This document shows, piece after piece, positions 7,078 to 33,150 of a stretch of 33,150 bases of DNA (position 1 is its first letter; every line of letters begins with the position of its first letter). A program made the translations under genes and the position numbers. Under the pieces are notes generated by a model that was not told the DNA's origin, did no database searches, and was given only the letters and a program-made list of their open reading frames with translations. This DNA comes from Piscinibacter caeni (GTDB lineage Bacteria; Pseudomonadota; Gammaproteobacteria; Burkholderiales; Burkholderiaceae_C), in the NCBI GenBank assembly GCA_003265685.1, contig KZ836130.1, positions 1 to 33,150 of the forward strand, read 5' to 3'.

Positions 7078-7092
7078 GCCGGGACGGTCGGC

Positions 7093-13599: not shown

Positions 13600-13636
13600 G
13601 TCTCGGGGGTCTTCTAATTCGGTTATGGTCGGGCGC

Positions 13637-14563
<927 letters not shown>

Positions 14564-14576
14564 CCGGGGCGCTCCG

Positions 14577-15578
14577 GTGAGTGCCGTCCTGCCCCGTGCC
14601 GCGCTGGCGCCGGTGGCCACGCTGCGCACCTGGTGGCGGCGCTGGTGGCAGGCGCGCCTGCCGCGCACCGACACGCTGCTGCTGACCCAGCGCAACGTCT
14701 ACATCCTGCCCACGCGCGCCGGCATCGCCTTCGCGATCACGCTGCTGGTGCTGCTGCTGGCGTCGATCAACTACCAGCTCAACCTCGGCTACGTGCTGAC
14801 CTTCCTGCTGGCCGGCAGCGCGGTGGTGGCGATGCACGTCACGCACAACACGCTGCGCACGCTGACGCTGCGCCTGCGCCCGCCCGCCCCGGTGTTCGCC
14901 GGCGAGGCCGCGCTGCTCGAGGTGGTGCTGGCCAGCCCGACGCACGCCCGCTTCGGCGTCGGGCTGCGCGTGCTCGGCGCGGCCTGGGACACGCTGTCCT
15001 GGACCGACGTGCCGGCCATGGGCCAGGCCAGCGCGCGGGTTGGCTTCGTGCCGGCGCAGCGCGGGGTGCACGAGCTGCCCGCGCTCAGCGTCGAGACGCG
15101 CTTCCCGCTCGGGCTGTTCCGCGCCTGGGCGATCTGGCGCCCGGCGGCCACGCTGCTGGTCTACCCCGCGCCCGAGAAACCCGCCGCGCCGCTGCCGCCG
15201 CCGCTGCCGCACCCCGGCGGCCCGCAGCACGGACGGCGCACCGACGGCGGCGAGGTCGAGGGCGTGCGCAGCTACCGGCGCGGCGACGCGCTCAAGCTCG
15301 TCTACTGGAAGAAGGCGGCCAAGTCGCTGGCCAGCGGCGGCGAGCTGGTCAGCCGCGACACCACCGGCACGGTGCAGCAGCAGCTCTGGCTGGAGTGGCA
15401 GGCTTGCGCCCCGCTGGCGCCGGAGCACCGCCTCGAGCGCCTGGCCGCCTGGGTCCTGGCAGCGCAGCGCGCCGGCATCGACTACGGTCTGCGCCTGCCC
15501 GGGGTGCCCGCCATCGAGCCGGCAGAAGGCGACGCGCAGCGGCGCCGCTGCCTGGAGGCGCTGGCGCTGTGGCAGTGA
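14577..15578 (+). CDS. DUF58 domain-containing membrane protein
   Basis: The 333-residue protein has two adjacent hydrophobic segments (about residues 50-90), then a beta-rich region and the DUF58 signature near residues 222-258: EVEGVRSYRRGDALKLVYWKK, followed by LVSRD. It belongs with MoxR and TgpA as a conserved partner, and the segment is probably a short von Willebrand-like or adaptor domain facing the cytoplasm. The start is a GTG at 14577, 13 bases after the moxR stop. The stop TGA at 15576-15578 overlaps the GTG start of the next gene. Molecular role is not established; DUF58 proteins are thought to link MoxR ATPases to membrane partners. Confidence 0.9.
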   Translation: MSAVLPRAALAPVATLRTWWRRWWQARLPRTDTLLLTQRNVYILPTRAGIAFAITLLVLLLASINYQLNLGYVLTFLLAGSAVVAMHVTHNTLRTLTLRLRPPAPVFAGEAALLEVVLASPTHARFGVGLRVLGAAWDTLSWTDVPAMGQASARVGFVPAQRGVHELPALSVETRFPLGLFRAWAIWRPAATLLVYPAPEKPAAPLPPPLPHPGGPQHGRRTDGGEVEGVRSYRRGDALKLVYWKKAAKSLASGGELVSRDTTGTVQQQLWLEWQACAPLAPEHRLERLAAWVLAAQRAGIDYGLRLPGVPAIEPAEGDAQRRRCLEALALWQ

Positions 15579-17587
15579 CGCCGCGCTTCTGGGCCCGCCT
15601 GCCGCGCGAGGGCCGCGACACGCTGTTCCTGCTCGGCGTGATCGGCTGGACCATCCTGCCGCACCTGCCGCACTTGCCGGGCTGGTGCATCGCGTTGACC
15701 ACGCTGGTGCTGGCCTGGCGCGCCCAGCTGGCCGTCAGCAACGGCCCGCTGCCCAGCCGCTGGCTGCTGGTGGGCGTGCTCGCGGTGGCGCTCGGGCTGA
15801 CGCTCTTCAGCTTCCGCACCCTGTTCGGCAAGGAGCCGGGGGTCACGATGGCCGTGGTGCTGATGGGCCTGAAGACGCTCGAGCTGCGTGCCCGGCGCGA
15901 CGCCTTCGTGATCTTCTTCCTCGGCTTCTTCCTGGTGCTGACGCACTTCCTCTACTCGCAGTCGCTGCCGGTCGCGCTGGCGATGCTGGTGTCGGTCTGG
16001 GGGCTGCTGACGGCGCTGGTGCTGGCGCACATGCCGGTCGGCCAGCCCAGCCTGCGCCAGGCGGCGCTGCTGGCCGGACGCACCGCGCTGCTCGGCGCGC
16101 CGGTGATGGTGCTGCTGTTCCTGCTCTTCCCGCGCATCGGCCCGCTGTGGGGCGTGCCGCAGGACGGCCAGGCCGGCACCGGGCTGTCCGAGCGCATGCG
16201 CCTGGGCAGCATCGCCGAGGCGGTGCTGGACGACCGCATCGCGCTGCGGCTGCGCTTCGACGGTCCGGCCCCCACGCCCGAGACGCTGTACCTGCGCGGC
16301 CCGGTGCTGTCGCGCTTCGACGGCCAGGAGTGGCGCCCGATGGAGCCGCTGGTGGCGCGGCGCTCCGGCAGTGCCGACCCGCTGCAGCCGCTGGGCCCGG
16401 CGCTGCGCTACGAGGTCACGCTCGAGCCGAACCGCCTGGCCCTGCTGCCGCTGCTCGAGATGAGCACCCAGGTCGACGAGATCGAGGGCCACCGCGTGCG
16501 CCGCACCGACGAGCTGGTGTGGATCACCGAGCGCCCGGTCACGGAGCGGCTGCGCTTCGACGCCCAGGCGCACGTGCGCTGGCGGATCGCCGCCGCCCCC
16601 GGGCCGCTGCGGCTGCGCGAGTACCTGCAGCTGCCGCCCGGCTTCAACCCGCGCACGCTGCAGTGGGCGGCCGAGCTGCGGCGCGACCCGCGCTACGCGA
16701 ATGCGCCACCCGGCGTGCTGGTGCAGGCCGTGCTGGCCCACATCCGCAGCGGCGGCTACAGCTACACGCTGGCGCCCGGCACCTACGGCCGCGACGGCAT
16801 CGACGAGTTCTGGCTCGACCGCAAGGAGGGCTTCTGCGAGCACTTCGCGGCCGCCTTCGTGGTGGTGATGCGCGCGCTGGACGTGCCGGCGCGCATCGTC
16901 ACCGGCTACCAGGGTGCCGACCCGGCGCCGGTGGACGGCTTCCTGATCGTGCGCCAGAGCGCGGCCCATGCCTGGGCCGAGTACTGGCAGGACGGCCTCG
17001 GCTGGGTGCGCGCCGACCCGACCGCCGCGGTGGCGCCGGACCGCATCGAGCGCAGCCGCCGCCTGGCGCCCGCACCCGGGCTGGTGAGCGGGGCGATCGG
17101 CGCGGTCAGCCCGGCCCTGGTGCAGCGCCTGCGCCAGGCCTGGGAGGCGCTGGACAACCGCTGGAACCAGTGGGTGCTGAGCTACTCGCGCGGCCAGCAG
17201 TTCGCGCTGCTCAAGGACATCGGCTTCTCCACTCCCGACTGGGCCGACCTGGCGCTGCTGCTGACCGGCACGCTCAGCACGCTGGCGCTGATCGGCGCCG
17301 GCTGGGCCTGGTGGGACCGCCGCCGCGTCGATCCCTGGGTGCGCCAGCGCGAGGCGCTGCTGGCCGGTCTGGCCCGGCTGGGCGTCGCCGCCTCGGCGCA
17401 GGATGCGCCGGCCGCGCTGGCACGCCGCCTGCACGAGCGCTACGGCGCGTCGGCGCAACCGCTGGCCGAGCTGCTCGCCACGCTGGAGCGGCAACGCTAC
17501 GGCCGCGACGCGCTGCGCCGCCCCGACCCCGAACTGACCCGTGCCTTCGGCGCCGCCGTGCGTGCACTGGCAGCCCATTCCGCCTGA
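15575..17587 (+). CDS. tgpA: TgpA-type membrane transglutaminase (DUF3488-transglutaminase-DUF4129)
   Basis: The 670-residue protein begins with about six hydrophobic segments (residues 15-190, DUF3488), then a large periplasmic part with a transglutaminase-like core, a late membrane segment (about 560-580) and a C-terminal cytoplasmic DUF4129 tail. The catalytic triad is complete: Cys421 in EGFCEHFA, His465 in AAHAWAEY, Asp481 in RADPTAAV. Pseudomonas aeruginosa TgpA, encoded beside moxR and DUF58 genes in the same order, has a periplasmic domain with transglutaminase activity and is essential there. The start is inferred as the GTG at 15575, overlapping the DUF58 stop (GTGA); a GTG at 15569 is an alternative. 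Substrates are unknown. Confidence 0.92.
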   Translation: MTPRFWARLPREGRDTLFLLGVIGWTILPHLPHLPGWCIALTTLVLAWRAQLAVSNGPLPSRWLLVGVLAVALGLTLFSFRTLFGKEPGVTMAVVLMGLKTLELRARRDAFVIFFLGFFLVLTHFLYSQSLPVALAMLVSVWGLLTALVLAHMPVGQPSLRQAALLAGRTALLGAPVMVLLFLLFPRIGPLWGVPQDGQAGTGLSERMRLGSIAEAVLDDRIALRLRFDGPAPTPETLYLRGPVLSRFDGQEWRPMEPLVARRSGSADPLQPLGPALRYEVTLEPNRLALLPLLEMSTQVDEIEGHRVRRTDELVWITERPVTERLRFDAQAHVRWRIAAAPGPLRLREYLQLPPGFNPRTLQWAAELRRDPRYANAPPGVLVQAVLAHIRSGGYSYTLAPGTYGRDGIDEFWLDRKEGFCEHFAAAFVVVMRALDVPARIVTGYQGADPAPVDGFLIVRQSAAHAWAEYWQDGLGWVRADPTAAVAPDRIERSRRLAPAPGLVSGAIGAVSPALVQRLRQAWEALDNRWNQWVLSYSRGQQFALLKDIGFSTPDWADLALLLTGTLSTLALIGAGWAWWDRRRVDPWVRQREALLAGLARLGVAASAQDAPAALARRLHERYGASAQPLAELLATLERQRYGRDALRRPDPELTRAFGAAVRALAAHSA

Positions 17588-17594
17588 TCCCGCG

Positions 17595-18626
17595 ATGTCC
17601 CGACCGTTCGTCCACCGCTTCCTGGCCGGCCTGCTGCTGGCCGCCTGCAGCCTCGCCGCCGCCGCGCCCCGCACCCCGGAACCCCAGCCCTACGGCGAGC
17701 GCGAGGACGTGATGCGCTTCGCCGACGCCGCCGCGCAGCGGCTCGAGGCCGAGCCGCAGTGGGTGCGCGGCGTGCTCGCGCAGGCCCGCCTGGTGCCGGC
17801 GGTGGCCCGGCTGATCATGCCGCCCCCGCCCGGCACGGCCAAGGACTGGGCGGCCTACCGCGCCCGCTTCGTGGAGCCCAAGCGGATTGCCGCAGGCCTG
17901 GCCTTCTGGCGCGAGCACGAACGCTGGCTGAACCTCGCCGAGGAGCGCTGGGGCGTGCCGCCGGCCATCGTGGTCGGCATCGTCGGCGTGGAGACGCTGT
18001 ACGGCCAGCACACCGGCAGCTTCCGCGTGCTCGACGCGCTGGCCACGCTGTCGTTCGACTTCCCGCCCGGGCGGCGCGACCGCAGCGAGTTCTTCCGCAG
18101 CGAGCTGGAGGCCTTCCTGCAGCTGGCGCGCCGCGAGGCGCTCGACCCGCTCGAGGCCAAGGGCAGCTACGCGGGCGCGATCGGCCTGCCCCAGTTCATG
18201 CCCTCGAGCGTCCTGAAGTACGCGGTCGACTTCGACGGCGACGGCCGCATCGACCTGCTCGGCAGCCCGGCCGACGCGATCGGCAGCGTCGCGCGTTACC
18301 TGGCCGAGTTCGGCTGGCAGCGCGGCGCGCCGACCCACTTCGCCGTGGCCGCGCCGGTGGAGGTGCGCGACCGCGCGCTGCTGCTGGTGCCCGACATCCT
18401 GCCGAGCTTCGACACCGCCGGGTTCGCCGAGCGAGGCGCGAAGCTCGACGAGGCCGGTGCCGCCTGGCCCGGCAAGCTGGCGCTGATCGAGCTGCAGAAC
18501 GGCGACGACGCGCCGAGCTACGTGGCCGGCACCACCAACTTCTACGCCATCACGCGCTACAACTGGTCGAGCTACTACGCGATGGCGGTGATCGAGCTGG
18601 GCGAGGCGGTGCGCCGCCAGCGCTGA
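17595..18626 (+). CDS. mltB: Lytic murein transglycosylase, MltB family
   Basis: The 343-residue protein matches membrane-bound lytic transglycosylase B, which cleaves peptidoglycan glycan strands to form 1,6-anhydromuramyl ends. The predicted catalytic acid is Glu133 in IVGVETLYGQ; SYAGAIGLPQFMPSS and the DFDGDGRIDLL segment are also family hallmarks. The N-terminus has a hydrophobic signal with LAAC (Cys18), consistent with a lipoprotein, though a later AAA cleavage cannot be excluded. The ATG at 17595 lies 7 bases after the tgpA stop. A longer frame would begin inside tgpA and is unlikely. Its position directly after the membrane transglutaminase suggests shared work in the cell envelope. 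Confidence 0.92.
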   Translation: MSRPFVHRFLAGLLLAACSLAAAAPRTPEPQPYGEREDVMRFADAAAQRLEAEPQWVRGVLAQARLVPAVARLIMPPPPGTAKDWAAYRARFVEPKRIAAGLAFWREHERWLNLAEERWGVPPAIVVGIVGVETLYGQHTGSFRVLDALATLSFDFPPGRRDRSEFFRSELEAFLQLARREALDPLEAKGSYAGAIGLPQFMPSSVLKYAVDFDGDGRIDLLGSPADAIGSVARYLAEFGWQRGAPTHFAVAAPVEVRDRALLLVPDILPSFDTAGFAERGAKLDEAGAAWPGKLALIELQNGDDAPSYVAGTTNFYAITRYNWSSYYAMAVIELGEAVRRQR

Positions 18627-20898: not shown

Positions 20899-21135
20899 TC
20901 ACGCGCCGGCCGGCGCCGGCAGCGGCTGGCGCATCGCCTCCAGCCAGTCGTCCAGCGCCGCGCCCTCGCAAACCTGCAGCCCGTGCTGCAGCTCGCGGCT
21001 GGACTCGAACCAGCCGGGGCCGGCGTCGTCCGCGTCGTCGGTCGCCAGGCGCATCATGCGGAAGCGGCGCAGCAGCGCCTCGTCGGCGCCGCGCGGCCGG
21101 CACAGCGTGGCAATGCGGGTGATGAAGCGGGCCAT
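20899..21135 (-). CDS. 78-residue soluble protein at the tail of the ligase/transglutaminase operon
   Basis: The frame starts at an ATG at 21135 with a strong GAGGAG site seven bases upstream, so it is very likely translated. The product has a basic N-terminal helix (MARFITRIATLCRPRG), an Arg-rich centre and the segment GWFESSRELQHGLQV, followed by an acidic WLEAM stretch and a Pro/Ala-rich end (PLPAPAGA). There is no signal peptide. A similar WFESS..L..GL pattern recurs, to my recollection, in short uncharacterised burkholderial proteins. It lies 107 bases after the last transglutaminase on the same strand. That gap is G/C-rich and has no clear terminator. Function unknown. Confidence 0.75.
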   Translation of the reverse strand: MARFITRIATLCRPRGADEALLRRFRMMRLATDDADDAGPGWFESSRELQHGLQVCEGAALDDWLEAMRQPLPAPAGA

Positions 21136-21242
21136 CGGCGGCTCCTCGTGATCTCGATGGAGCCAGTGTTCCGGCCGCCGCCGCAGCCGGAAATCCCGCC
21201 GCGGTCGGCCCCCGGCGGCGGGCCACCCGGCGGGGGGACGTT

Positions 21243-22127
21243 TCAGCCGACCGGGATCACGCTGACCGCCACGTCCATGGTCTGCGTGCCGCCGCCGAGG
21301 ATCACGCCGCGCAGCGGCACGACGTCGGCAAAGTCCGCGCCCCAGGCGAGCGTGATGTAGCGCTGGTCGGCCAGCTGGTCGTTGGTGGGGTCGAACTCGA
21401 CCCAGCCGTGCTGCGGCGAATGGGCGGCCACCCAGGCGTGCGAGGCGTCCACCCCCATCAGGCGGGGCTGGCCGGCCGGTGGGTCGGTCAGCAGGTAGCC
21501 GGAGACGTAACGCGCCGGCAGCCCCAGGCCGCGCAGGCAGGCGAGCATCAGGTGGGCGAAGTCCTGGCAGACGCCGCGGCGCTCCTTCAGCACCTCGTCG
21601 ACCGAGGTGCTGACGGTGGTGGCGCCGGCCTCGAACTCGAACTCGGCATGGATGCGGCGCATCAGGTCGGTCACCGCCTCGAGCCAGTCGCGCCCGGCGG
21701 AGAACGAGGGCCGCGCATAGGCCAGCGCGGCGTCGGACAAGGGCAGCAGCGGCGTGCGCTCGACCATGCGAAGCGCGTCGAGGTCGACCGGCGCGGCCGG
21801 CTGGCGCACCGCCTGGCGCACCGCCTCCCAGGGCTCGGCGGCCTGCGGCTGCAGCTGCGCGCGGGCGCCGACCTCCACCTCGCACTGCATGCTCACGCGC
21901 AGGCGGCGGTGCGCGACATGCAGGCCGAAGTGGGTAACGGTGTTGCCGAAGCTGTCCGGCGCGTCGTGGCGCTCGTCCGGGCGCGGGTCGATGTTCAGGC
22001 GGTGCACCAGCACCTTCTGCCAGGGCAGCTCGCGCGGCGTCAGGCGCGCCAGCTGCCACGACTGCGAGACCGGCGCGTCGTAGGCGTAGCGCGTCTCGTG
22101 TTCGACCTGGTACCTCTGACCTTTCAT
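21243..22127 (-). CDS. Transglutaminase-like cysteine peptidase, second module
   Basis: The 294-residue cytoplasmic protein has the bacterial transglutaminase N-terminal beta domain (YQVEHETRYAYDAPVSQSWQLARLTPRE) and the catalytic core. The triad is complete: Cys187 in RRGVCQDFAH, His230 in DASHAWVAA and Asp246 in EFDPTND. It has no signal peptide. Proteins of this group are usually predicted to be peptidases or amide-transferring enzymes rather than protein cross-linkers. Its ATG overlaps the stop of the ATP-grasp/alpha-E fusion (ATGA), which implies translational coupling and a functional tie to that ligase. This is the last catalytic gene of the operon. Confidence 0.93.
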   Translation of the reverse strand: MKGQRYQVEHETRYAYDAPVSQSWQLARLTPRELPWQKVLVHRLNIDPRPDERHDAPDSFGNTVTHFGLHVAHRRLRVSMQCEVEVGARAQLQPQAAEPWEAVRQAVRQPAAPVDLDALRMVERTPLLPLSDAALAYARPSFSAGRDWLEAVTDLMRRIHAEFEFEAGATTVSTSVDEVLKERRGVCQDFAHLMLACLRGLGLPARYVSGYLLTDPPAGQPRLMGVDASHAWVAAHSPQHGWVEFDPTNDQLADQRYITLAWGADFADVVPLRGVILGGGTQTMDVAVSVIPVG

Positions 22128-24607
22128 GCGACCAGCGACAGCACGCTGCGCGAGGCCGCATGCGAGAAGAACTTGAGCGTCAGCTCGTCGGACACCTGGT
22201 GGGCCATGCGCTGCAGCTGCTCCAGCAGCGCGGCGAGTGCCTCGCTCTCGGGGTGCAGGTCGGCCGGCGTCAGCGCCGCCAGCGCCGCCTGCGCCGGGCC
22301 GATCGCGGCGCCGGCGAAACGCCCGTGGCGCGCCTCGAGCTTGGCGATGTACTCGGCCAGGCCCTTGACCTGGAAGGCCAGTGCGCGCGGCACGGCGTCG
22401 TCGCGCACCAGCAGGTCGAGCACCGGCAGCCACTCGGGCGCGACCAGGTAGCGGGCCCGGTAGGTGACCGACGAATCGGCCCAGTCGAGCAGCCACTCCA
22501 GGCCCTGCGCGCGGCCCTCGTCGGTGGCCACCTGCAGCGCGGCGCACAGGTGCCAGAGCCGCTCGATGCGCCGGCCGATCGACAGGAAGCGCCAGCCCGT
22601 GCCGCGTGTCATGCCGTCCAGCACGAAGCCCGACAGCGTGACCATCGCGGCGACCGCACGATCGAGCCAGGCCAGCGCCAGCGGCAGGCGCATCGTGGCC
22701 GAGGGCACGCTGCGCTGGAACACCGGGTCGCCGATCAGCTGGTTGAGGGTGCGCCAGTGGTCGGCCGACAGCCGGTCGCGCAGGCTGAAGGCCACCTGCG
22801 AGAGCTGGCGCAGCCGCTGCGCCAGCGCGCCCTCGGGGTGCGTGGCGGCGCGCAGCAGCGCCAGCGCCGGGCTCTCGCCCTCGTCGACCAGGCCGAGCCG
22901 CTGCGCCAGCACGAAGGCCGGCGAGACGCCGCCGGCCGCGTCGGCGCCCTCCTCCAGCAGCGCGTCGATGGCCACGCGCAGCAGGCGCATCGCGGCATCG
23001 CAGCGCTCGCCGTAGCGGCCGAACCAGAACAGGTTCTCGGCGGTGCGCGAGGGCAGGTTGGCGCGCGAGCTGACCAGGTCGGCCGGCGTCACCGTGGACG
23101 ACAGCAGCGAGAACGACGCGTTGACCGGCGCGTCGGACAGCACCCAGGTGTCCTTCGAGCGGCCGCCGCGCTGCATCGCGATCACGCGCGGCGTCTCCTC
23201 GCCGGCCACGCGCGTCAGCCCGCCGGGCATCACGCGGTAGCCGTCCGGCGTGGCGACGGCGAACACGCGCAGGCCGACGGTGCGCGCGGCGAGTGTCTCG
23301 CGCGGGCGGCCGTGCCCGGCGCGCTCCAGCACCGGCGCCTGCGACACATGCACCCACTCCTGCGCGACGTAGCGCTGCGGCCGCGCCGCCACGCGCGCCT
23401 TCAGCTCGGCGCGCTGGCGCGCATCCAGGTCCGCGCCGAACACCGCCGGCTCGCGCGCCGAGCGCTCGATCGGCTTGATCAGCACCTGGTCGAGCCGGGC
23501 CCAGGCGTCCTCGAAGGCGGCCGGCTCGCCCAGCCACCAGGTGGCCACCGAGGGCAGGCGCAGCGGCTCGCGCAGTAGTTGCTCGCACAGCCGCGGCAGG
23601 TAACCCAGCAGCGCGCCCGACTCGATCACGCCCGAGCCGAGTGCGTTGGCGATCAGCACGCTGCCGCGCCGCGCACATTCGGTCAGCCCCGGCACGCCGA
23701 GCGCGGAGTCGGAACGCAGCTCGAGCGGATCGCAGTAGTCGTCGTCCTGCCGGCGCAGGATGGCGTGCACACGCTGCAGGCCCTCGACCGTCTTCATCCA
23801 GACGCAGCCGTCGCGCACCGTCAGGTCGCTGCCCTCGACCAGCGCGAAGCCGAGGTAACGCGCCAGCAGCGCATGCTCGAAGTAGGTCTCGTTGAACGGG
23901 CCCGGCGTCAGCAACGCGACCTGCGGCACGCCGTCGCCCGGGCCGTGGCGCGGCGCCCAGTGCAGCAGCGATTCGCGCATCGCGGCGAAGAACGAGGCCA
24001 GGTGCTGCACGCGCAGGTCGCGGAACAGCTCGGGGAACACCCGCGCGACGATCAGCCGGTTCTCGAGCGCATAGCCCGCGCCGGAGGGCGCCTGGGTGCG
24101 GTCGCTCGCCACCCACCAGCGGCCGTCGGGCGAACGCGCCAGGTCGGCGGCGTAGTGGAACAGGTGCACCCCGCCGTTCGGCCGGATGCCCTGCGCCGGG
24201 TGCAGGAAGCCGCCGTGGCCGAAGATCACCGAGGCGGGCACCGCGCCGCTCCTGAGCAACTGCTGCTCGCCGTACACGTCGGCCAGCACGCGGTTCAGCA
24301 GCTCGGCACGCTGCACGATGCCGGCCTCGATCTCGCGCCACTCGTCGGCCGAGATCAGCAGCGGCAGCGGGTCCACCTCCCACGGGCGGTCCTTGCCCTT
24401 CGGATCGGCATACACGTTGTAGGTGATGCCGTTCTCGTGGATCTCGCGCTCCATCAGCGCGAGCGTGTCGCCGATCGCCCCGCCGCCACGCTGCTCCAGC
24501 CCGCGCAGGAAACCCTCCCAGTGCGGACGCGGCTGCTGCGCTGCGGCGAGCATCTCGTCGTAGCGGCCCGGCTGCGCGGCGTAGGCGGCGAGCAGTCTCT
24601 TGAGCAT
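22124..24607 (-). CDS. Circularly permuted ATP-grasp ligase fused to alpha-E domain
   Basis: The 827-residue protein joins two domains encoded separately elsewhere in the same operon. Residues 1-495 are a circularly permuted ATP-grasp (DUF404/DUF407 type): ENGITYNVYAD, GPFNETYFEHALLARYLG (236-253), VMPGGLTRVA (459-468) and SKDTWVLSD (484-492). Residues 517-827 are an alpha-E (DUF403) helical domain, starting SRTAENLFWFGRYGERCDAAMRLLR-like. ATP-grasp enzymes form amide bonds through acyl phosphates. The glycine-rich loop of the stand-alone paralogue (HGAGGYG) is replaced here near residue 378 by KPIERSAREP, marking a different subfamily. Product and substrate are unknown. The 57-base gap to the upstream DUF2126 gene contains a strong inverted repeat. 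Confidence 0.92.
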   Translation of the reverse strand: MLKRLLAAYAAQPGRYDEMLAAAQQPRPHWEGFLRGLEQRGGGAIGDTLALMEREIHENGITYNVYADPKGKDRPWEVDPLPLLISADEWREIEAGIVQRAELLNRVLADVYGEQQLLRSGAVPASVIFGHGGFLHPAQGIRPNGGVHLFHYAADLARSPDGRWWVASDRTQAPSGAGYALENRLIVARVFPELFRDLRVQHLASFFAAMRESLLHWAPRHGPGDGVPQVALLTPGPFNETYFEHALLARYLGFALVEGSDLTVRDGCVWMKTVEGLQRVHAILRRQDDDYCDPLELRSDSALGVPGLTECARRGSVLIANALGSGVIESGALLGYLPRLCEQLLREPLRLPSVATWWLGEPAAFEDAWARLDQVLIKPIERSAREPAVFGADLDARQRAELKARVAARPQRYVAQEWVHVSQAPVLERAGHGRPRETLAARTVGLRVFAVATPDGYRVMPGGLTRVAGEETPRVIAMQRGGRSKDTWVLSDAPVNASFSLLSSTVTPADLVSSRANLPSRTAENLFWFGRYGERCDAAMRLLRVAIDALLEEGADAAGGVSPAFVLAQRLGLVDEGESPALALLRAATHPEGALAQRLRQLSQVAFSLRDRLSADHWRTLNQLIGDPVFQRSVPSATMRLPLALAWLDRAVAAMVTLSGFVLDGMTRGTGWRFLSIGRRIERLWHLCAALQVATDEGRAQGLEWLLDWADSSVTYRARYLVAPEWLPVLDLLVRDDAVPRALAFQVKGLAEYIAKLEARHGRFAGAAIGPAQAALAALTPADLHPESEALAALLEQLQRMAHQVSDELTLKFFSHAASRSVLSLVA

Positions 24608-24634
24608 CGGCCGATTGTCCGCGGTGGAGGTGGG

Positions 24635-24663
24635 CCCCGCCCTGCCGGAAACGCGGGGCGGGG
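24635..24663 (-). repeat. 8-bp inverted repeat between DUF2126 and ATP-grasp/alpha-E genes
   Basis: CCCCGCCC (24635-24642) pairs perfectly with GGGCGGGG (24656-24663) around a 13-base loop. It begins just after the DUF2126 stop in transcription direction. No T-tract follows on the minus strand, so it is not a standard terminator. It could attenuate or process the transcript and is at the largest gap between catalytic genes in this operon. Confidence 0.5.
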
Positions 24664-24664
24664 T

Positions 24665-28075
<3,411 letters not shown>

Positions 28076-28909
28076 TCAGGGCTCCAGGGTGATCTGTTCT
28101 TCTGCTTCGCGGACGAGCACATGCACGCGCATCGATTCCTCGCCGCCGCCCTCGCGCACGCCGCGCACCGGCGCGCAGGCGCGGTAGTCGGGCCCGACCG
28201 CCAGGCGCACGTGGCGCTCGTCCATCAGCGCGTCGTGCGTGATGTCCACGCTCAGCCAGCGGCGCGCGGCGGCGTCGATGCAGACATCGGCCCAGGCGTG
28301 GCTGGCCAGCTCGGCGGCGCGCGGCGAGTGGAAATAGCCGCTCACGTAGCGCGCCGGCACGCCGGCCGCCCGGCAGGCGGCGATGAAGACATGCGCCTGG
28401 TCCTGGCACACGCCGGCGCCCAGGTCCAGCGCCTCGCGCGCGCTGGTGCGCACGTGGGTCACCCCGGCCTCGTAGCGCACCGCCGCGCGCACCGCGGCAG
28501 CCAGGCCCAGCACGGCAGCAACGTCGGGCGCGCCGGCCAGGTGCGCGCGGCCGAGCGCACTCAGCCGCGCGTCGGCCGCGGTCAGCGGCGTCGGGCGCAG
28601 GTACAGCGCGGGGTGCGGATCGCCGGGGCCGTCCTCCAGCCAGGGTGAACCGCGCGTGGCCACCAGCCCGTTCGCACGCACGCTGCCGCGGTACAGATTG
28701 CGTCCGTGGCGCTGGCGCGCCAGGCTCCAGCTGTGCGCGAGGTTGCCGTAGCCGTCACGCTGCGCGTACAGCGGCGCCGGCGCGCAGAGGCTCCACTCGA
28801 GCACCTCCTGGTGCGCGCTGCCCTGCGGCGTCAGGCACAGGTGCTGCAGCGCGTACTGCAGCGGCGCGCTGTACTCGTAGTGCGTCTCGTGCTCGATGCG
28901 CAGCTTCAT
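28076..28909 (-). CDS. Transglutaminase-like cysteine peptidase, first module
   Basis: The 277-residue cytoplasmic protein has the N-terminal beta domain (IEHETHYEYSAPLQYALQHL) and the catalytic core with Cys168 in GAGVCQDQAH, His204 in ASHAWADV and Asp222 in SVDITHD. The acid motif differs from the usual DPTND of its paralogue at 21243-22127, so the pair have diverged. There is no signal peptide. Its stop lies against the ATG of the transglutaminase-DUF2126 gene, and it begins 14 bases after the alpha-E gene, so it is embedded in the operon. A peptidase or amide-transfer role is predicted from the fold; no substrate is known. Confidence 0.93.
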   Translation of the reverse strand: MKLRIEHETHYEYSAPLQYALQHLCLTPQGSAHQEVLEWSLCAPAPLYAQRDGYGNLAHSWSLARQRHGRNLYRGSVRANGLVATRGSPWLEDGPGDPHPALYLRPTPLTAADARLSALGRAHLAGAPDVAAVLGLAAAVRAAVRYEAGVTHVRTSAREALDLGAGVCQDQAHVFIAACRAAGVPARYVSGYFHSPRAAELASHAWADVCIDAAARRWLSVDITHDALMDERHVRLAVGPDYRACAPVRGVREGGGEESMRVHVLVREAEEQITLEP

Positions 28910-28923
28910 CGGCCGACACGGCG

Positions 28924-29901
28924 TCACTGCACCGGGACCAGGAAGTCGCGGCTGATGCCCGCGCCGATCGTGTTGACGCGCTCGAGGAACTGCGTGAGGA
29001 AGGCGTGCAGCCCGGTCGACAGGATCTCGTCGATGCGGCCGTACTGCAGGTCGGCGCGCAGGCGCCCTGCCCGGCGCAGCGTCTCGCCGGACTGCTCGTT
29101 GGCGACGAACTCGAGGTTGGTCACGACCTCGTTCATGCACGCCGCCAGCGAGCGCGGCATGTCGGCGCGCAGGATCAGCAGCTCGGCCACCTTCTCGGGC
29201 CGGATCACGTTGCGGTAGGCCTTGCGGTATACCTCGAATCCGGAGACGGAGCGCAGGATCGCCGACCAGTGGTAGAAGTCGTACTCGACGTCGCGGCCGT
29301 TGGCCACGCCCTGCGACTGCGAGGCGCCGAAGAACTCGCTCTCGACGGCGTGGAACTTCACGTCCAGCAGCCGCGCGGTGTTGTCGGCACGCTCGAGGAA
29401 GCTGCCGATGCGCAGGAAGTGGAAGGCCTCGTCCTGCAGCATCGTGCCGACCGTGACGCCGCGCGAGAGGTGCGAGCGGAACTTGACCCACTCGAACAGC
29501 GCGCTCGGGTCCTTCTGGAAGTCGCTCTCCGCGACCATGCGCTGGAACTCGAGCCAGGTCTGGTTCTGCGTCTCCCACACCTCGGTGGTGAGCGTGCCGC
29601 GCACCGCGCGTGCGTTCTCGCGCGCGGCCATCAGGCAGGAACGGATGCTCGACGGGTTCTTGTCGTCGGCCACCATGTACTGCATGACGTTGCGCGCCGT
29701 CACCTCGTGGCCGTGGCGCGCGGCGAAGTCGCCGCTCAGCTCGGAGATGCCCAGCAGGCCCTTCCAGCCCTTCTCGGCCGCATCGGCCGACTGCGGCAGC
29801 AGCGAGGTCTGGTAGTTGACGTCGAGCATGCGGGCGGTGTTTTCGGCCCGCTCCATGTAGCGCGACATCCAGAACAGGTGATCGGCGGTTCTCGACAGCA
29901 T
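28924..29901 (-). CDS. Stand-alone alpha-E (DUF403) protein
   Basis: The 325-residue, almost wholly alpha-helical protein matches the alpha-E family: MLSRTADHLFWMSRYMERAENTARMLD at the start (given here in outline), then FLRIGSFLERADNTARLLDVKFH in the middle, two copies of an ERA/ERAxNTAR motif that suggest an internal duplication. The family carries conserved Glu and Arg residues and always travels with circularly permuted ATP-grasp enzymes. It may bind the substrate or hold partner enzymes, but has no established reaction. It lies 12 bases after the ATP-grasp gene and 14 before the transglutaminase gene. Confidence 0.93.
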   Translation of the reverse strand: MLSRTADHLFWMSRYMERAENTARMLDVNYQTSLLPQSADAAEKGWKGLLGISELSGDFAARHGHEVTARNVMQYMVADDKNPSSIRSCLMAARENARAVRGTLTTEVWETQNQTWLEFQRMVAESDFQKDPSALFEWVKFRSHLSRGVTVGTMLQDEAFHFLRIGSFLERADNTARLLDVKFHAVESEFFGASQSQGVANGRDVEYDFYHWSAILRSVSGFEVYRKAYRNVIRPEKVAELLILRADMPRSLAACMNEVVTNLEFVANEQSGETLRRAGRLRADLQYGRIDEILSTGLHAFLTQFLERVNTIGAGISRDFLVPVQ

Positions 29902-29913
29902 GTTGTGCGCTCC

Positions 29914-31350
29914 TCAGGCCTCGAGAACCCAGGTGTCCTTGGTCCCGCCGCCCTGCGACGAGTTGACCACCAGCGAGCCCTCCTTCAGCGCCACGCGCGT
30001 CAGGCCGCCCGGCACCATCTGCACCTCCTTGCCCGACAGCACGAAGGGCCGCAGGTCGATGTGGCGCGGCGCGATGCCGCTCTCGACGAAGGTCGGGCAG
30101 GTCGACAGGCTGAGCGTGGGCTGCGCGATGTACCCGGCCGGGTTGGCCTCCAGCGCCTTGCGGAAGTCGGCGATCTCGGCCTTGGTCGCGGCCGGGCCGA
30201 CCAGCATGCCGTAGCCGCCCGCGCCGTGCACCTCCTTGACGACCAGCTCGCCGAGATGGTCGAGCACGTACTTCAGGTCGTCGGCCTCGCGGCAGAGGTA
30301 GGTGGGCACGTTGTTCAGGATCGGCTTCTCGCCGAGGTAGAACTCGACCATCTTCGGCACGTAGGGGTAGATCGACTTGTCGTCGGCGACGCCGGTGCCG
30401 ATGGCATTGCACAGCGTCACGTTGCCGGCCCGGTAGACCGACAGCAGCCCGGCGCAGCCGAGCGTGGAGTCAGGCCGGAAGGCGAGCGGGTCGAGGAAGT
30501 CGTCGTCGACGCGGCGGTAGATCACGTCCACCCGCTTCGGCCCCTGGGTGGTGCGCATGTAGACGAAGTTGTCCTTGACGAACAGGTCCTGGCCCTCGAC
30601 CAGCTCGACGCCCATCTGCTGCGCGAGGAAGGCATGCTCGAAGTAGGCGCTGTTGTACATGCCCGGCGTCAGCACCACCACGGTCGGCTCGTTGACCGCC
30701 GCCGGCGCCACCGCGCGCAGCGTCTCGAGCAGCATGTCGGGGTAATGCGCCACCGGCTCGACGCGGTGCTGGCTGAACAGCTCGGGAAACAGCCGCATCA
30801 TCATCTTGCGGTTCTCGAGCATGTAGCTCACGCCGCTGGGCACGCGCAGGTTGTCCTCCAGCACGTAGTAGCTGCCGCTGCCGTCGGCATTCGCGGCGCG
30901 CACGATGTCGATGCCGGAGATATGCGAGTAGACGCCGCCGGGCACGTCCACGCCCATCATCTCGGGGCGGAACTGCGCGTTCTTGAAGATCTGGTCGGCC
31001 GGCACCAGCCCGGCGCGGATGATCTCCTGGTCGTGGTAGACGTCGTGGATGAAGCGGTTCAGCGCCGTCACGCGCTGCGCCAGGCCCTTCTCCATCTCGA
31101 CCCACTCGTGCGCCGGGATCACGCGCGGGATCAGGTCGAACGGGATCAGGCGCTCGGTGCCGGAGCCGTCCTCGTCCTTCGCGCCGTAGACCGCGAAGGT
31201 GATGCCGACGCGGCGGAAGATCATCTCCGCCTCCTCGCGACGCGACTTCATCACGTCGCGCGGCTGCTGCGCCAGCCAGCGGTCGTAGCCGCGGTAATGC
31301 TTGCGCACCACGGCGCTGGTGGCATGCATCTCGTCGAAACTCGGTCTCAT
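29914..31350 (-). CDS. Stand-alone circularly permuted ATP-grasp ligase
   Basis: The 478-residue protein is a DUF404/DUF407-type ATP-grasp enzyme. Motifs in order: GITFAVYG (49-56), VLEDNLRVPSGVSYMLENR (163-181), TPGMYNSAYFEHAFLAQQMG (228-247), a glycine-rich VKEVHGAGGYG loop (371-381), MVPGGLTRVA (445-454) and GGGTKDTWVLEA (467-478). ATP-grasp enzymes activate a carboxylate as acyl phosphate and join it to an amine, so peptide or amide synthesis is predicted; the product is unknown. The ATG at 31350 is supported by a GAGGAG site and by family starts; the frame continues upstream into the terminator. It is the first gene of the seven-gene minus-strand operon. Confidence 0.94.
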   Translation of the reverse strand: MRPSFDEMHATSAVVRKHYRGYDRWLAQQPRDVMKSRREEAEMIFRRVGITFAVYGAKDEDGSGTERLIPFDLIPRVIPAHEWVEMEKGLAQRVTALNRFIHDVYHDQEIIRAGLVPADQIFKNAQFRPEMMGVDVPGGVYSHISGIDIVRAANADGSGSYYVLEDNLRVPSGVSYMLENRKMMMRLFPELFSQHRVEPVAHYPDMLLETLRAVAPAAVNEPTVVVLTPGMYNSAYFEHAFLAQQMGVELVEGQDLFVKDNFVYMRTTQGPKRVDVIYRRVDDDFLDPLAFRPDSTLGCAGLLSVYRAGNVTLCNAIGTGVADDKSIYPYVPKMVEFYLGEKPILNNVPTYLCREADDLKYVLDHLGELVVKEVHGAGGYGMLVGPAATKAEIADFRKALEANPAGYIAQPTLSLSTCPTFVESGIAPRHIDLRPFVLSGKEVQMVPGGLTRVALKEGSLVVNSSQGGGTKDTWVLEA

Positions 31351-31381
31351 CAGTCGCGTCTCCTCGACGAGGCGGGGTAGC

Positions 31382-31402
31382 AAAAAACAGGCCACGGGCC
31401 CG
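31382..31402 (-). terminator. Rho-independent terminator after comEC
   Basis: Read on the minus strand, a 6-bp stem (one G-T pair) closes on a CGT loop (31388-31402) and runs straight into TTTTTT (31387-31382), beginning 12 bases after the comEC stop. A second, upstream hairpin (GCCCGG / CCGGGC, 31398-31413) overlaps its 5' arm and cannot form at the same time. It separates comEC from the ligase operon. Confidence 0.75.
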
Positions 31403-31413
31403 GGGCGCCGGGC

Positions 31414-33150
31414 TCATTCCGGCACGTCGGCAGCGCGATGGTGCCAGTAGCGGCGAGCCGCGTCACGCTCGCACTGCGTGCCCTCGGGCTGCCACCGCCA
31501 GGCTCCGCAGGACGGGCTGGCCACCACCGCGGCACCGGCGGCCCGGTAGCGCGCCAGTACCTCCGGCGCCGGGTGGCCGAAGCGATTGCGGTAGCCGGCC
31601 TGCACCACCACCACCTGCGGCTGCACGAGGGCCAGGAATTCCTGCGACGACGAGCTGCGGCTGCCGTGATGCGGCGCGAGCAGCAGATCGGTCTTCAGCG
31701 CCGCGCCAACCCGCTCGACCAAAGCCAGCTCCTGCTCGCGCTCGATGTCGCCGGCCAGCAGGGCGCTGCGCCCGGCGGCATCGACGACGCGCAGCACGCA
31801 GGACACGGCATTCGGCTTCACCGCCAGCGCCAGCTCGGCGGGCCGCGGGTGCAGCACCTCGAAGCGCACGCCGTCCCAGGTCCAGGCCTGCCCGGCCCGG
31901 CAGGGACGTTCGCGCACGGCGAGCGCGCGCAGCGGGTGGCCGTCTTCCAGCGAGCTGAGCAGTTCGCCCACCGGCAGCGCGCCCAGCAGGGCACGCGCGC
32001 CGCCGACATGGTCGCTGTCGCGGTGACTCAGCACCAGCGTGTCGATGCGCGGCTCGCCGCGGGCGCGCAGCAGGGGCAGCAGAACGCGCTCGCCGGCGTC
32101 GCTGTCGCGTCCGTACAGCGGCCCGGCGTCGTACACCAGCAGGTGCCGCGCGGTACGCACCAGCACCGCGTTGCCCTGCCCGACGTCCACCGCCAGCAGT
32201 TCGAAGCGCCCCGGCTCGGGCCGCACCGGCATGCCGAGCAGCATCGGCAGCGCCAGCGGCAGCGCGAGCGCGCGCAGGCGCCAGGGCAGCGGCATCACCA
32301 GCAGCGCGCCCGCCAGCAGCGCCGCGCCCTGCGCCCAGGGTGCGGCGGCCGGCACCGTCCATACCGCCCAGGGCCAGGCCGCCAGCGCGGCGAGCAGCAG
32401 CGTCAGCCCCTGCAGCAGCGCGGCCGCTGCGGTCCACAGCCACGGCAGCACGGCACCGGCCAGCGCCAGCGGCGTCACCACCAGCGTGATCAGCGGGATG
32501 GCCACCAGGTTGGCCAGGAAACCGACCACCGACACCTGCTGGAAAAACAGCAGCGTCAGGGGCGCCAGGCCGACGCTGGCGACCAGCTGGGTGCGGCCCG
32601 CGCCGCGCAGCAGCGCCAGCGCCCGCCCGGTCCAGGGCTGCCCGGCCGCCGGCGGCGCGGCGGCCTGGGCGGGTTCCGAGGCCATCAGCAGGCCGACCGC
32701 CGCGAACGACAGCCAGAAACCCGCCTGCAGCAGCGCCCAGGGGTCGACCAGCGTCACCGCCGTCGCGGCCGCCAGCAGCACCAGCGGCCAGGGCCAGCGG
32801 CGGCCCAGGGAGCGCAGCAGCACGGCACTGGCCAGCATCAGCACGGTGCGCTGCGCCGGCACGCCCCAGCCCGCGAGCACGGCGTAGGCCGCCGCTGCCG
32901 CCAGCCCGCCCCAGCGCGCCGCCTGCGCCGCCGGCACGGCATGCACGGCGCGCGCGCTGCGCCGCCACAGCGCGCCGATCAGCCCGCCGGCGAGCCAGGC
33001 GAACATCGTGACGTGCAGCCCGCTGATCGACATCAGGTGCCCCAGGCCGGTGGCGCGGAACAGCTCCCAGTCCTCGCGCGCGATCGCCGCCTGGTCGCCC
33101 ACCGTCAGCGCGGCCAGCACGCCGGCCGCCCGTGCATCGCCCACCTGCGC
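31414..33150 (-). CDS. comEC: ComEC/Rec2 DNA-uptake channel, C-terminal part (partial at right edge)
   Basis: The frame is open through the window edge, so the N-terminal part is missing; the 578 visible residues carry the competence membrane domain and the metallo-beta-lactamase domain. The hallmark GHLMSISGLHVTMF lies near residue 36-48 of the visible part, followed by several hydrophobic helices. The MBL domain begins VDVGQGNAVLVRT (319-331), with LSHRDSDHVGG (372-382) holding the metal-ligand motif, and a later LAGDIE and APHHGS. ComEC carries single-stranded DNA across the inner membrane in natural transformation, and the MBL domain has been proposed to degrade the non-transported strand. 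This supports a capacity for DNA uptake, although the rest of the machinery is outside the window. Confidence 0.93.
   Translation of the reverse strand, partial: AQVGDARAAGVLAALTVGDQAAIAREDWELFRATGLGHLMSISGLHVTMFAWLAGGLIGALWRRSARAVHAVPAAQAARWGGLAAAAAYAVLAGWGVPAQRTVLMLASAVLLRSLGRRWPWPLVLLAAATAVTLVDPWALLQAGFWLSFAAVGLLMASEPAQAAAPPAAGQPWTGRALALLRGAGRTQLVASVGLAPLTLLFFQQVSVVGFLANLVAIPLITLVVTPLALAGAVLPWLWTAAAALLQGLTLLLAALAAWPWAVWTVPAAAPWAQGAALLAGALLVMPLPWRLRALALPLALPMLLGMPVRPEPGRFELLAVDVGQGNAVLVRTARHLLVYDAGPLYGRDSDAGERVLLPLLRARGEPRIDTLVLSHRDSDHVGGARALLGALPVGELLSSLEDGHPLRALAVRERPCRAGQAWTWDGVRFEVLHPRPAELALAVKPNAVSCVLRVVDAAGRSALLAGDIEREQELALVERVGAALKTDLLLAPHHGSRSSSSQEFLALVQPQVVVVQAGYRNRFGHPAPEVLARYRAAGAAVVASPSCGAWRWQPEGTQCERDAARRYWHHRAADVPE

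What the first reader, a model, noticed from the sequence alone, without database searches (positions are those of the whole stretch)
20899..31350. Seven-gene locus with three predicted amide-bond ligases and three transglutaminase-type peptidases
All genes lie on one strand, mostly 0-14 bases apart or overlapping: ATP-grasp, alpha-E, transglutaminase, transglutaminase-DUF2126, ATP-grasp/alpha-E fusion, transglutaminase, 78-residue protein. Seen directly: complete Cys-His-Asp triads in all three transglutaminase domains and intact family motifs in the ligases. Known: Iyer, Aravind and colleagues predicted from gene neighbourhoods that circularly permuted ATP-grasp, alpha-E, transglutaminase and GS-like amidoligase families cooperate in peptide synthesis or peptide tagging; I know of no demonstrated product. 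Inference: the locus makes, attaches and trims a short peptide or amide conjugate, with ligases forming and cysteine peptidases breaking or transferring the bonds. None of the catalytic proteins has a signal peptide, so the chemistry is cytoplasmic.
Basis: partly seen in the sequence, partly recalled or inferred. Interest (0 to 1): 0.8.

Follow-up and report, generated by a model that had tools for sequence, protein, structure and literature searches.

The report
Nitrogen-starvation amide ligase and peptidase operon
A bacterial gene cluster of bond-making and bond-cutting enzymes looks like part of the response to nitrogen starvation and is the partner of a little-understood proteasome-like protein; one of its three supposed bond-making enzymes appears to be catalytically dead, and what the cluster makes is still unknown.

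Summary
The seven genes are real and all on the minus strand. They are a known kind of locus: Anbu-operon genes (ATP-grasp, alpha-E, transglutaminase) joined to a second module (TG-DUF2126, ATP-grasp/alpha-E fusion, transglutaminase). Additions and corrections: (1) A sigma-54-like site lies 29 bases before the first gene and is kept in the eight genus genomes examined. Such sites precede 32 of 49 related ATP-grasp genes and 43 of 78 named DUF2126 operons, against 21 of 517 neighbour genes. Published: NtrC/sigma-54 dependence in Burkholderia cenocepacia; nitrogen-limitation induction in Pseudomonas putida, which however persisted in an rpoN mutant. (2) The fusion is a predicted pseudo-ligase: the ExN metal motif is gone in 76 of 76 named homologues, with conserved alpha-E residues. 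So two ligases, not three. (3) DUF2126 resembles YbdK and glutamine synthetases in predicted fold, weakly. (4) Anbu is in the genome but unlinked; across 143 genomes alpha-E and Anbu co-occur (34 both, 99 neither). Most likely: a starvation-switched amide-ligation/cleavage system for nitrogen salvage. Substrate unknown.

The parts
31379..31394 (-). sigma-54 (-24/-12) promoter-like site TGGCCTGTTTTTTGCT, 2 of 12 consensus letters off
   Evidence: kept in the 8 genus genomes examined while the bases just upstream vary; class-wide enrichment
31430..31444 (-). possible NtrC-binding palindrome GCACCATCGCGCTGC (1 letter off), inside the comEC 3' end; weak, not conserved in all genus members
   Evidence: exact NtrC boxes upstream of 10 of 77 related operons vs 11 of 2310 random stretches; alignment
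29914..31350 (-). circularly permuted ATP-grasp ligase, 478 aa, probably active
   Evidence: Pfam; PDB 3n6x E 8.7e-228; the diagnostic residues are kept
28924..29901 (-). alpha-E protein, 325 aa, all-helical model, no solved relative found
28076..28909 (-). TG1, transglutaminase-type cysteine hydrolase of the Anbu-operon type, 277 aa, triad C168/H204/D222
24665..28075 (-). transglutaminase domain + DUF2126 (GS/GCS2-like amidoligase), 1136 aa, triad C180/H229/D245
22124..24607 (-). ATP-grasp/alpha-E fusion, 827 aa, predicted pseudo-ligase (metal and ATP-loop residues lost)
21243..22127 (-). TG2, transglutaminase-type cysteine hydrolase, 294 aa, triad C187/H230/D246; overlaps the fusion by ATGA
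20899..21135 (-). p78, small protein linked to the operon, found in the genus and one relative (motif GPGW[FY][ED]SS..L..GL.V.E)
   Evidence: no Pfam match

Best explanation
The locus is an NtrC/sigma-54-type nitrogen-starvation operon that carries the ligase/hydrolase side of the Anbu system. Steps supported by calls here: gene content, promoter-like site, presence of NtrC, RpoN and an unlinked Anbu in the genome, two ligases with their conserved residues, one degenerate ligase, three intact cysteine triads. Steps inferred: under nitrogen limitation NtrC-P and RpoN switch the operon on. The ATP-grasp (working with alpha-E) and the DUF2126 GS-like domain each activate a carboxylate with ATP and join it to an amine or peptide. 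The transglutaminase-type hydrolases, and probably Anbu, cut or transfer the bonds. The fusion is a non-catalytic scaffold or regulator for module B. The net purpose is salvage of nitrogen from peptides or amides when ammonium runs out.
For: Sigma-54-like site before the first gene, kept in 8 of 8 genus genomes examined. Sites before 32 of 49 ATP-grasp genes vs 141 of 6000 random stretches, and before 43 of 78 named operons vs 21 of 517 unrelated neighbour genes; module B on its own has them too (32 of 64 loci whose first gene is TG-DUF2126). Exact NtrC boxes in 10 of 77 operons vs 11 of 2310 random stretches. NtrC and RpoN genes in this genome. Published: B. cenocepacia I35_5080-83 (DUF404/407, DUF403, TG, large TG) have fold changes of -8.2, -9.4, -9.4 and -6.0 in an ntrC mutant and are named among the shared sigma-54 and NtrC targets (PMC5491218, passages). 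P. putida PP_2686-2688 rise 12.6-, 11.0- and 14.7-fold in the wild type under nitrogen limitation and NtrB/NtrC is given as putative regulator (PMC7801951, passages and table section); PP_2685 and PP_2688 rise log2 4.4 and 4.0 on nitrate vs ammonium (PMC8050072, passages). Yersinia Anbu-operon ATP-grasp releases phosphate from ATP (PMC6376114, passages). Alpha-E and Anbu co-occur: 34 both, 7 and 3 discordant, 99 neither of 143; each of the 26 DUF2126 genomes has alpha-E. DUF2126 model: the ten best PDB matches are YbdK and glutamine synthetases.
Against: In P. putida the induction persisted in an rpoN mutant: PP_2686-2688 rose 14.2-, 16.0- and 19.6-fold there, and Anbu (PP_2685) only 1.1-fold in the wild type (PMC7801951). 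The urea transporter genes, which the paper also assigns to NtrB/NtrC, persisted likewise (6.9- to 16.7-fold). No substrate, product or mutant phenotype was seen in the papers. Anbu standing alone lacks the site (2 of 20 loci have one), so in this lineage Anbu may not be co-induced. The window's NtrC box is weak and not conserved across the genus. 17 of 49 and 35 of 78 related operons have no site at the chosen threshold. DUF2126 fold matches are weak (best E 7.5e-3, TM-scores of the ten best at most 0.36). Nitrogen salvage as purpose is inferred from regulation only; Yersinia Anbu showed no peptidase activity and no specific partner binding (PMC6376114).
Confidence: 0.46

Rival explanations
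1. Gamma-glutamyl-type scavenging: the ligases attach glutamate (or another carboxylate) to amines taken up as nitrogen sources, as PuuA or GmaS do, and the cysteine hydrolases release the carboxylate at the end.
For: Nitrogen response; DUF2126 fold resembles GS and YbdK, with GmaS among the matches (rank 12); polyamine and amino-acid transporter genes are in the same B. cenocepacia regulon table.
Against: No oxidase, dehydrogenase or aminotransferase is among the operon's Pfam hits; neighbouring genes in relatives were clustered but not annotated systematically. Two ligase types and three cysteine hydrolases are more than that cycle needs.
Confidence: 0.2
2. Synthesis of a dedicated peptide or small conjugate made on starvation (signal, storage or protective compound), with the hydrolases as editing or recycling enzymes: the first reader's view.
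For: Ligase plus hydrolase content; Iyer et al. 2009 predicted peptide synthesis (seen only as cited).
Against: No exporter or carrier among the operon's Pfam hits; making a nitrogen-rich product under nitrogen starvation is uneconomic unless it is small (inference).
Confidence: 0.17
3. Pup-like protein tagging: ligases attach a tag to proteins, transglutaminases edit, and Anbu degrades.
For: A GS-like ligase beside a proteasome relative parallels PafA and the proteasome (recalled); tight co-occurrence with Anbu.
Against: p78 was found only in the genus and in one relative (plus one weak, interrupted hit) among 40 relatives, and its C-terminus varies, unlike Pup. No unfoldase among the operon's Pfam hits. 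Yersinia Anbu showed no peptidase activity.
Confidence: 0.08
4. The sigma-54-like site in this lineage is fortuitous, or another factor drives the operon, and the genes are housekeeping enzymes unrelated to nitrogen.
For: The site has 2 mismatches; a 120-base stretch of this window has a site this good in 0.3-1.3% of draws. P. putida induction persisted without rpoN.
Against: Footprint in 8 of 8 genus genomes; class-wide enrichment; published nitrogen response.
Confidence: 0.07

Closest known systems
Anbu operon (ATP-grasp, alpha-E, transglutaminase, Anbu) of Pseudomonas, Yersinia and others (Iyer 2009, Fuchs 2017; PMC5666114, PMC6376114)
   Same: First three genes in the same order and of the same families; Anbu present in the genome; nitrogen-limitation response in P. 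putida
   Different: Anbu gene unlinked and without a sigma-54-like site of its own (beside a gene I take for mutS by eye); joined to the DUF2126 module and to p78
Burkholderia cenocepacia I35_5080-83 (BCAM1233-1236)
   Same: By annotation the same first four genes in the same order, NtrC and sigma-54 dependent (PMC5491218). Burkholderia sp. TSV86 (L143) has the same six gene types in the same order here, its third gene matching TG2 better than TG1
   Different: No p78 homologue found in L143; the genes downstream of I35_5083 are not described in the passages I saw, and that its large protein carries DUF2126 is my inference
Glutathionylspermidine synthetase/amidase (GspSA)
   Same: ATP-dependent amide ligase paired with a cysteine amidase (recalled); PDB 3n6x, the closest solved ATP-grasp, is titled putative glutathionylspermidine synthase
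   Different: Profile comparison with E. coli GspSA finds no alignment; the hydrolase is of another family
RimK/RimB and RloABC systems
   Same: ATP-grasp ligase plus peptidase; RloB carries a transglutaminase-like domain (PMC12239564, passages)
   Different: No retropepsin-type protease among the operon's Pfam hits, and a CP_ATPgrasp rather than a RimK-type hit; the transglutaminases here have complete triads, RloB's is described as inactive

Membership tests
Anbu operon system | CP ATP-grasp, alpha-E and transglutaminase genes adjacent in this order | tested here: met
Anbu operon system | Anbu gene adjacent to the operon | tested here: not met
   Anbu is at G000:C4:1143-1874, another contig; in the class sample 28 of 34 genomes with both have them within 10 kb
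Anbu operon system | Anbu encoded in the genome | tested here: met
NtrC/sigma-54 regulon | -24/-12 promoter element upstream | tested here: met
NtrC/sigma-54 regulon | NtrC-binding palindrome upstream | tested here: inconclusive
   1-mismatch box, not kept in all genus members
NtrC/sigma-54 regulon | transcription depends on NtrC, RpoN and nitrogen limitation in this species | not testable with these tools
   other species only: dependent in B. cenocepacia, induction kept in an rpoN mutant of P. putida
GS/GCS2-like amidoligase (DUF2126) | Pfam DUF2126 match over the whole profile | tested here: met
GS/GCS2-like amidoligase (DUF2126) | glutamine-synthetase-like fold | tested here: inconclusive
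   the ten best PDB matches are YbdK or glutamine synthetases, but best E is 7.5e-3 and TM-scores are low
Active CP ATP-grasp ligase (the fusion protein) | conserved D/ExN metal residues and glycine-rich loop | tested here: not met
   E165 and N167 equivalents kept in 0 of 22 and 0 of 76
Active CP ATP-grasp ligase (first gene) | conserved D/ExN metal residues and glycine-rich loop | tested here: met
Glutathionylspermidine synthetase | sequence profile similarity to E. coli GspSA | tested here: not met
   hhalign probability 0.1%
Pup tagging | small tag with conserved C-terminal Gly-Gly-Glu/Gln (recalled) | tested here: not met
   p78 C-terminus is variable among homologues
Gamma-glutamylation amine pathway | oxidase or dehydrogenase genes alongside ligase and hydrolase | tested here: not met
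   none among the operon's Pfam hits

The most novel reading that the evidence does not exclude
Alpha-E is not a mere adaptor but contributes a catalytic or substrate site to the ATP-grasp ligase. In the fusion paralogue the ATP-grasp residues (E165, N167, R169, D323-D324-K325, H430, D432) and a specific set of otherwise near-invariant alpha-E residues (E95, N96, E110, R177, W212, H299) are lost together, while the alpha-E scaffold residues (W11, R14, E17, R18, R101, G166, E170, R171, P249) stay. The operon would thus be a starvation-switched amide cycle of one composite ATP-grasp/alpha-E ligase and one DUF2126 ligase, the latter controlled by a pseudo-ligase.
Probability: 0.3. Interest if true: 0.75.

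Novelty: new member of a known kind. Interest (0 to 1): 0.5.

Why it matters
As far as the papers I saw go, these families have had no demonstrated product since they were predicted in 2009, and Anbu, a proteasome relative, has no known substrate. Finding nitrogen-starvation-type promoter sites before both modules, the Anbu-type and the DUF2126-type, across a class of bacteria points to the growth condition in which to look for the product. Naming one 'ligase' as catalytically dead, and alpha-E residues that vanish with it, gives concrete point-mutant tests.

Tried and rejected
Script error: my first sigma-54 scan used a wrong column for the -12 GC and found nothing; corrected. In one search two loci (L133, L161) whose operon starts beyond the contig end were wrongly scanned; 44 of 80 as printed becomes 43 of 78 (recounted, where none of the 43 has its site only inside the gene). 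In one search no distance filter was applied (-300 to +30), so at least one hit (L024, inside the gene) is spurious. Its 49 loci include 7 of the window's genus and one gene fetched twice (L038/L078, no site in either). The co-occurrence sets and coordinates were typed by hand.

Pfam Proteasome search of the own genome reported an HslV-length hit and another Ntn-type protein on C97 and missed Anbu; the search with an Anbu sequence found it. Pfam scores own Anbu at 19.1 bits, below its 22.4 cut-off.

Expected sigma-54-like sites before stand-alone Anbu genes: not found (2 of 20). A loose NtrC-box scan (2 mismatches) was barely informative: 58 of 77 vs 893 of 1540; exact boxes were enriched. Profile comparison with GspSA gave nothing. 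Alpha-E model against PDB: best E 0.54. NCBIfam: no match for the 8 proteins submitted. A hairpin over the p78 ribosome-binding site recurs, but alignment support is thin: 1 of 5 pairs with two-sided change. The recurring-neighbour search showed mainly lineage-specific synteny.

Residue roles given to E165/N167 (ATP-grasp ExN motif), the GS-type motifs of DUF2126, the Pup C-terminus and the mutS and TgpA labels are recalled or by eye, not from a call. Caveat on the pseudo-ligase count: sequences were sorted by best match to the window's fusion or to its ATP-grasp, so an active ATP-grasp/alpha-E fusion would have been sorted with the active group. In one search internal stops in matched stretches were written as X (3 of 332 candidate stretches have one; not all of these entered the table).


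Full report
WHAT IS THERE. Seven genes run on the minus strand from 31350 to 20899, with gaps of 12, 14, 0, 57, -4 and 107 bases. Pfam places them as CP-ATP-grasp, alpha-E, transglutaminase (TG1), transglutaminase + DUF2126, CP-ATP-grasp + alpha-E fusion, transglutaminase (TG2), and an unassigned 78-residue protein. Upstream is a comEC gene (Pfam Competence) on the same strand. Downstream, on the other strand, are a possible NUDIX protein (E 0.018, below the cut-off) and a Na_H_Exchanger + TrkA_N transporter.

TWO MODULES. In relatives the cluster falls apart into recurring units. Module A is ATP-grasp, alpha-E, TG1, followed by Anbu in for example L030, L042, L043 and L044. Module B is TG-DUF2126, fusion, TG2. 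In many relatives B is a transcription unit of its own, divergent from A or within about 20 kb of it (L060, L076-L079, and many of the named loci), or without A in the stretch fetched (for example the Pseudomonas loci). The window's genus has A and B run together and ends with p78. One genus member (L026) has A and p78 without B; DUF2126 was not found in that genome (G149). Burkholderia sp. TSV86 (L143) has the same six gene types in order, and A joined to B without TG1 occurs in Ideonella, Thiomonas and others. So the composite is not unique.

ANBU. Searching with an Anbu sequence shows Anbu in this genome on another contig (C4:1143-1874), with the family's N-terminal MTYCVGIKLDAGLVFLSDSRTNAG. 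It sits beside a gene I take for mutS by eye and has no sigma-54-like site of its own (2 of 20 stand-alone Anbu loci have one). Across 143 genomes of the class, alpha-E is in 41, Anbu in 37 (two of these weak or partial), DUF2126 in 26. Alpha-E and Anbu: 34 both, 7 alpha-E only, 3 Anbu only, 99 neither (Fisher 1.6e-22). Each of the 26 DUF2126 genomes has alpha-E. Of the 34 with both, 28 have them within 10 kb. Among 40 closer relatives: 31 both, 1 and 1 discordant, 7 neither (test). The tests ignore relatedness among genomes.

CONTROL BY NITROGEN. A -24/-12 site, TGGCCTGTTTTTTGCT, lies at 31394-31379; its GC is 29 bases before the ATG. In an alignment of the eight genus genomes examined the site is kept in all eight, with two variable letters, both at positions free in the consensus, while the stretch between it and the comEC end varies in sequence and length. 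Using the consensus TGGCACG-N4-TTGCW with GG and GC fixed and at most two other mismatches, 32 of 49 ATP-grasp loci have a site, against 141 of 6000 random stretches. In an independent named set, 43 of 78 operons have one (44 of 80 printed; two dropped), against 21 of 517 upstream regions of unrelated neighbour genes and 148 of 6000 random stretches; tests. By first gene: TG-DUF2126 32 of 64, ATP-grasp 9 of 12, TG1 2 of 2, so module B carries sites of its own. Fifteen Pseudomonas module B operons have TGGCATAA-N3-TTGCG near the same distance; these have three mismatches and were counted as misses. Exact NtrC boxes occur upstream of 10 of 77 operons against 11 of 2310 random stretches. The window's own box is one letter off and not conserved. 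The genome encodes NtrC (686.6 bits summed, over the cut-off) and RpoN.

PUBLISHED EVIDENCE, as seen in passages unless noted. For: Burkholderia cenocepacia I35_5080-83, by annotation the same first four genes, are among the shared sigma-54 and NtrC targets (fold changes -8.2, -9.4, -9.4, -6.0; PMC5491218). P. putida PP_2686-2688 rise 12.6-, 11.0- and 14.7-fold in the wild type in nitrogen limitation, with NtrB/NtrC named as putative regulator (PMC7801951; table section read whole). PP_2685, PP_2686 and PP_2687 rise 11.1-, 6.6- and 7.1-fold in the first fold-change column of another data set (PMC3325844). PP_2685 and PP_2688 rise log2 4.4 and 4.0 on nitrate relative to ammonium, and the PP_2688 promoter responded 3.7-fold to nitrogen depletion (PMC8050072). 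Marine metagenome domain networks link the transglutaminase N-terminal domain, DUF403, DUF404 and DUF407 with urea metabolism domains (PMC3597751). [quoted passage not shown] the COG numbers I recall for alpha-E, CP-ATP-grasp, transglutaminase and DUF2126 do not occur in its main text (PMC12316311). Against: in the same P. putida table the rpoN mutant still shows 14.2-, 16.0- and 19.6-fold induction of PP_2686-2688, and PP_2685 (Anbu) rises only 1.1-fold in the wild type and 1.5-fold in the rpoN mutant, 4.8-fold in a relA/spoT mutant. The urtABCD genes, also assigned to NtrB/NtrC there, keep 6.9- to 16.7-fold induction in that mutant, so the result may concern the strain or the time point rather than these genes; I cannot tell. 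So nitrogen response of module A, and of a large transglutaminase protein that is probably TG-DUF2126, is in print. I found no statement about promoter sites of stand-alone DUF2126 modules or about a pseudo-ligase fusion in ten literature searches of an open-licence library, which lacks most subscription papers.

THE FUSION IS A PREDICTED PSEUDO-LIGASE. Aligned to 48 ATP-grasp proteins (window included), 22 fusion homologues (window included) all lack E165, N167, R169, D323, D324, K325 and D432, which are 100% conserved in the ATP-grasp group; none has the intact GGYG loop and 2 of 22 keep H430. In the named set (33 ATP-grasp, 76 fusion) the ATP-grasp group keeps each of the 30 tabulated residues in 33 of 33 and the fusion group keeps E165, N167, R169, D323, D324, K325, H430, D432, N463 and S465 in 0 of 76, while D148, R280, D282, D283, N315 and R434 stay in 76 of 76. 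The ExN pair is, from recall, the metal-binding motif of ATP-grasp enzymes. The fused alpha-E half also lost E95 (0 of 71), E110 (0 of 71), W212 (0 of 71), R177 (1 of 71), H299 (1 of 71) and N96 (3 of 71), while W11, R14, E17, R18, R101 and P249 stay in 71 of 71; in 31 separate alpha-E proteins these residues are kept in 30 or 31. This joint loss is the basis for the novel case.

DUF2126. A model from 51 sequences has mean pLDDT 74 and pTM 0.79. The best PDB match is YbdK (E 7.5e-3, probability 0.97); ranks 2-10 are glutamine synthetases and rank 12 is GmaS. TM-scores of the ten best are 0.36 or less, so the fold is supported, not proven. Conserved motifs around GGEPTF, TGTGGGNH and EMRAFEMPP are of a kind found on GS/GCS2 active-site strands (recalled).

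ALPHA-E. The model is good (pLDDT 87.8, all helix), yet Foldseek finds no solved relative (best E 0.54).

P78. Found in the 8 genus genomes examined and in one relative (L041/G154), where it lies upstream of ATP-grasp; a further weak hit (G173) carries a stop. Its C-terminus varies, so it is unlike a Pup tag. A hairpin over the ribosome-binding site is predicted in all nine, with little covariation.

MECHANISM. Best reading: nitrogen-starvation operon, two ATP-dependent amide ligases, three cysteine hydrolases, a pseudo-ligase scaffold, and Anbu acting from elsewhere, together salvaging nitrogen from peptides or amides. Shown: genes, motifs, promoter-like sites, co-occurrence. Inferred: chemistry, partners, purpose.

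NOVELTY. A new member of a known kind; the added points are the promoter-site pattern for both modules, the pseudo-ligase, the joint alpha-E loss and p78.

Noticed in passing
window 13592-18626 (+): MoxR-type AAA ATPase (13592-14563), a transglutaminase-core match at 16721-17020 (TgpA-like by position, recalled), and a lytic transglycosylase (17541-18626): a further transglutaminase region a few kb from the locus.
   Followed up: no
window 1795-3735 (-), 6202-7845 (+): Orn/Lys/Arg decarboxylase gene and an amino-acid-type ABC transporter (binding protein and permease) in the same window.
   Followed up: no
L142:8808-9869 and its cluster in 10 of 80 named loci: A putative zinc metallopeptidase (Peptidase_Mx with zinc ribbon; Pfam run on the L142 member only) recurs near the DUF2126 operon in Caballeronia, Paraburkholderia, Achromobacter and Marinobacter.
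   Followed up: partly
window 21133-21177 (-): Predicted hairpin covering the p78 ribosome-binding site, in eight genus members and in L041; the 107-base TG2-p78 spacer folds at -68.4 kcal/mol, z -3.4.
   Followed up: partly
L005:6293-7081 (own genome C97): A further proteasome-like protein (262 aa, 21.1 bits to PF00227, under its cut-off), different from Anbu, next to a 171-aa protein.
   Followed up: no
own genome C4:1137-1874: Pfam's Proteasome model scores this Anbu at 19.1 bits, under its 22.4 cut-off, so a Pfam-only survey misses it.
   Followed up: yes
L049 (genome G147): Frames of comEC and the whole operon are broken many times in this 77%-complete genome, probably sequencing error; left as found.
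   Followed up: no
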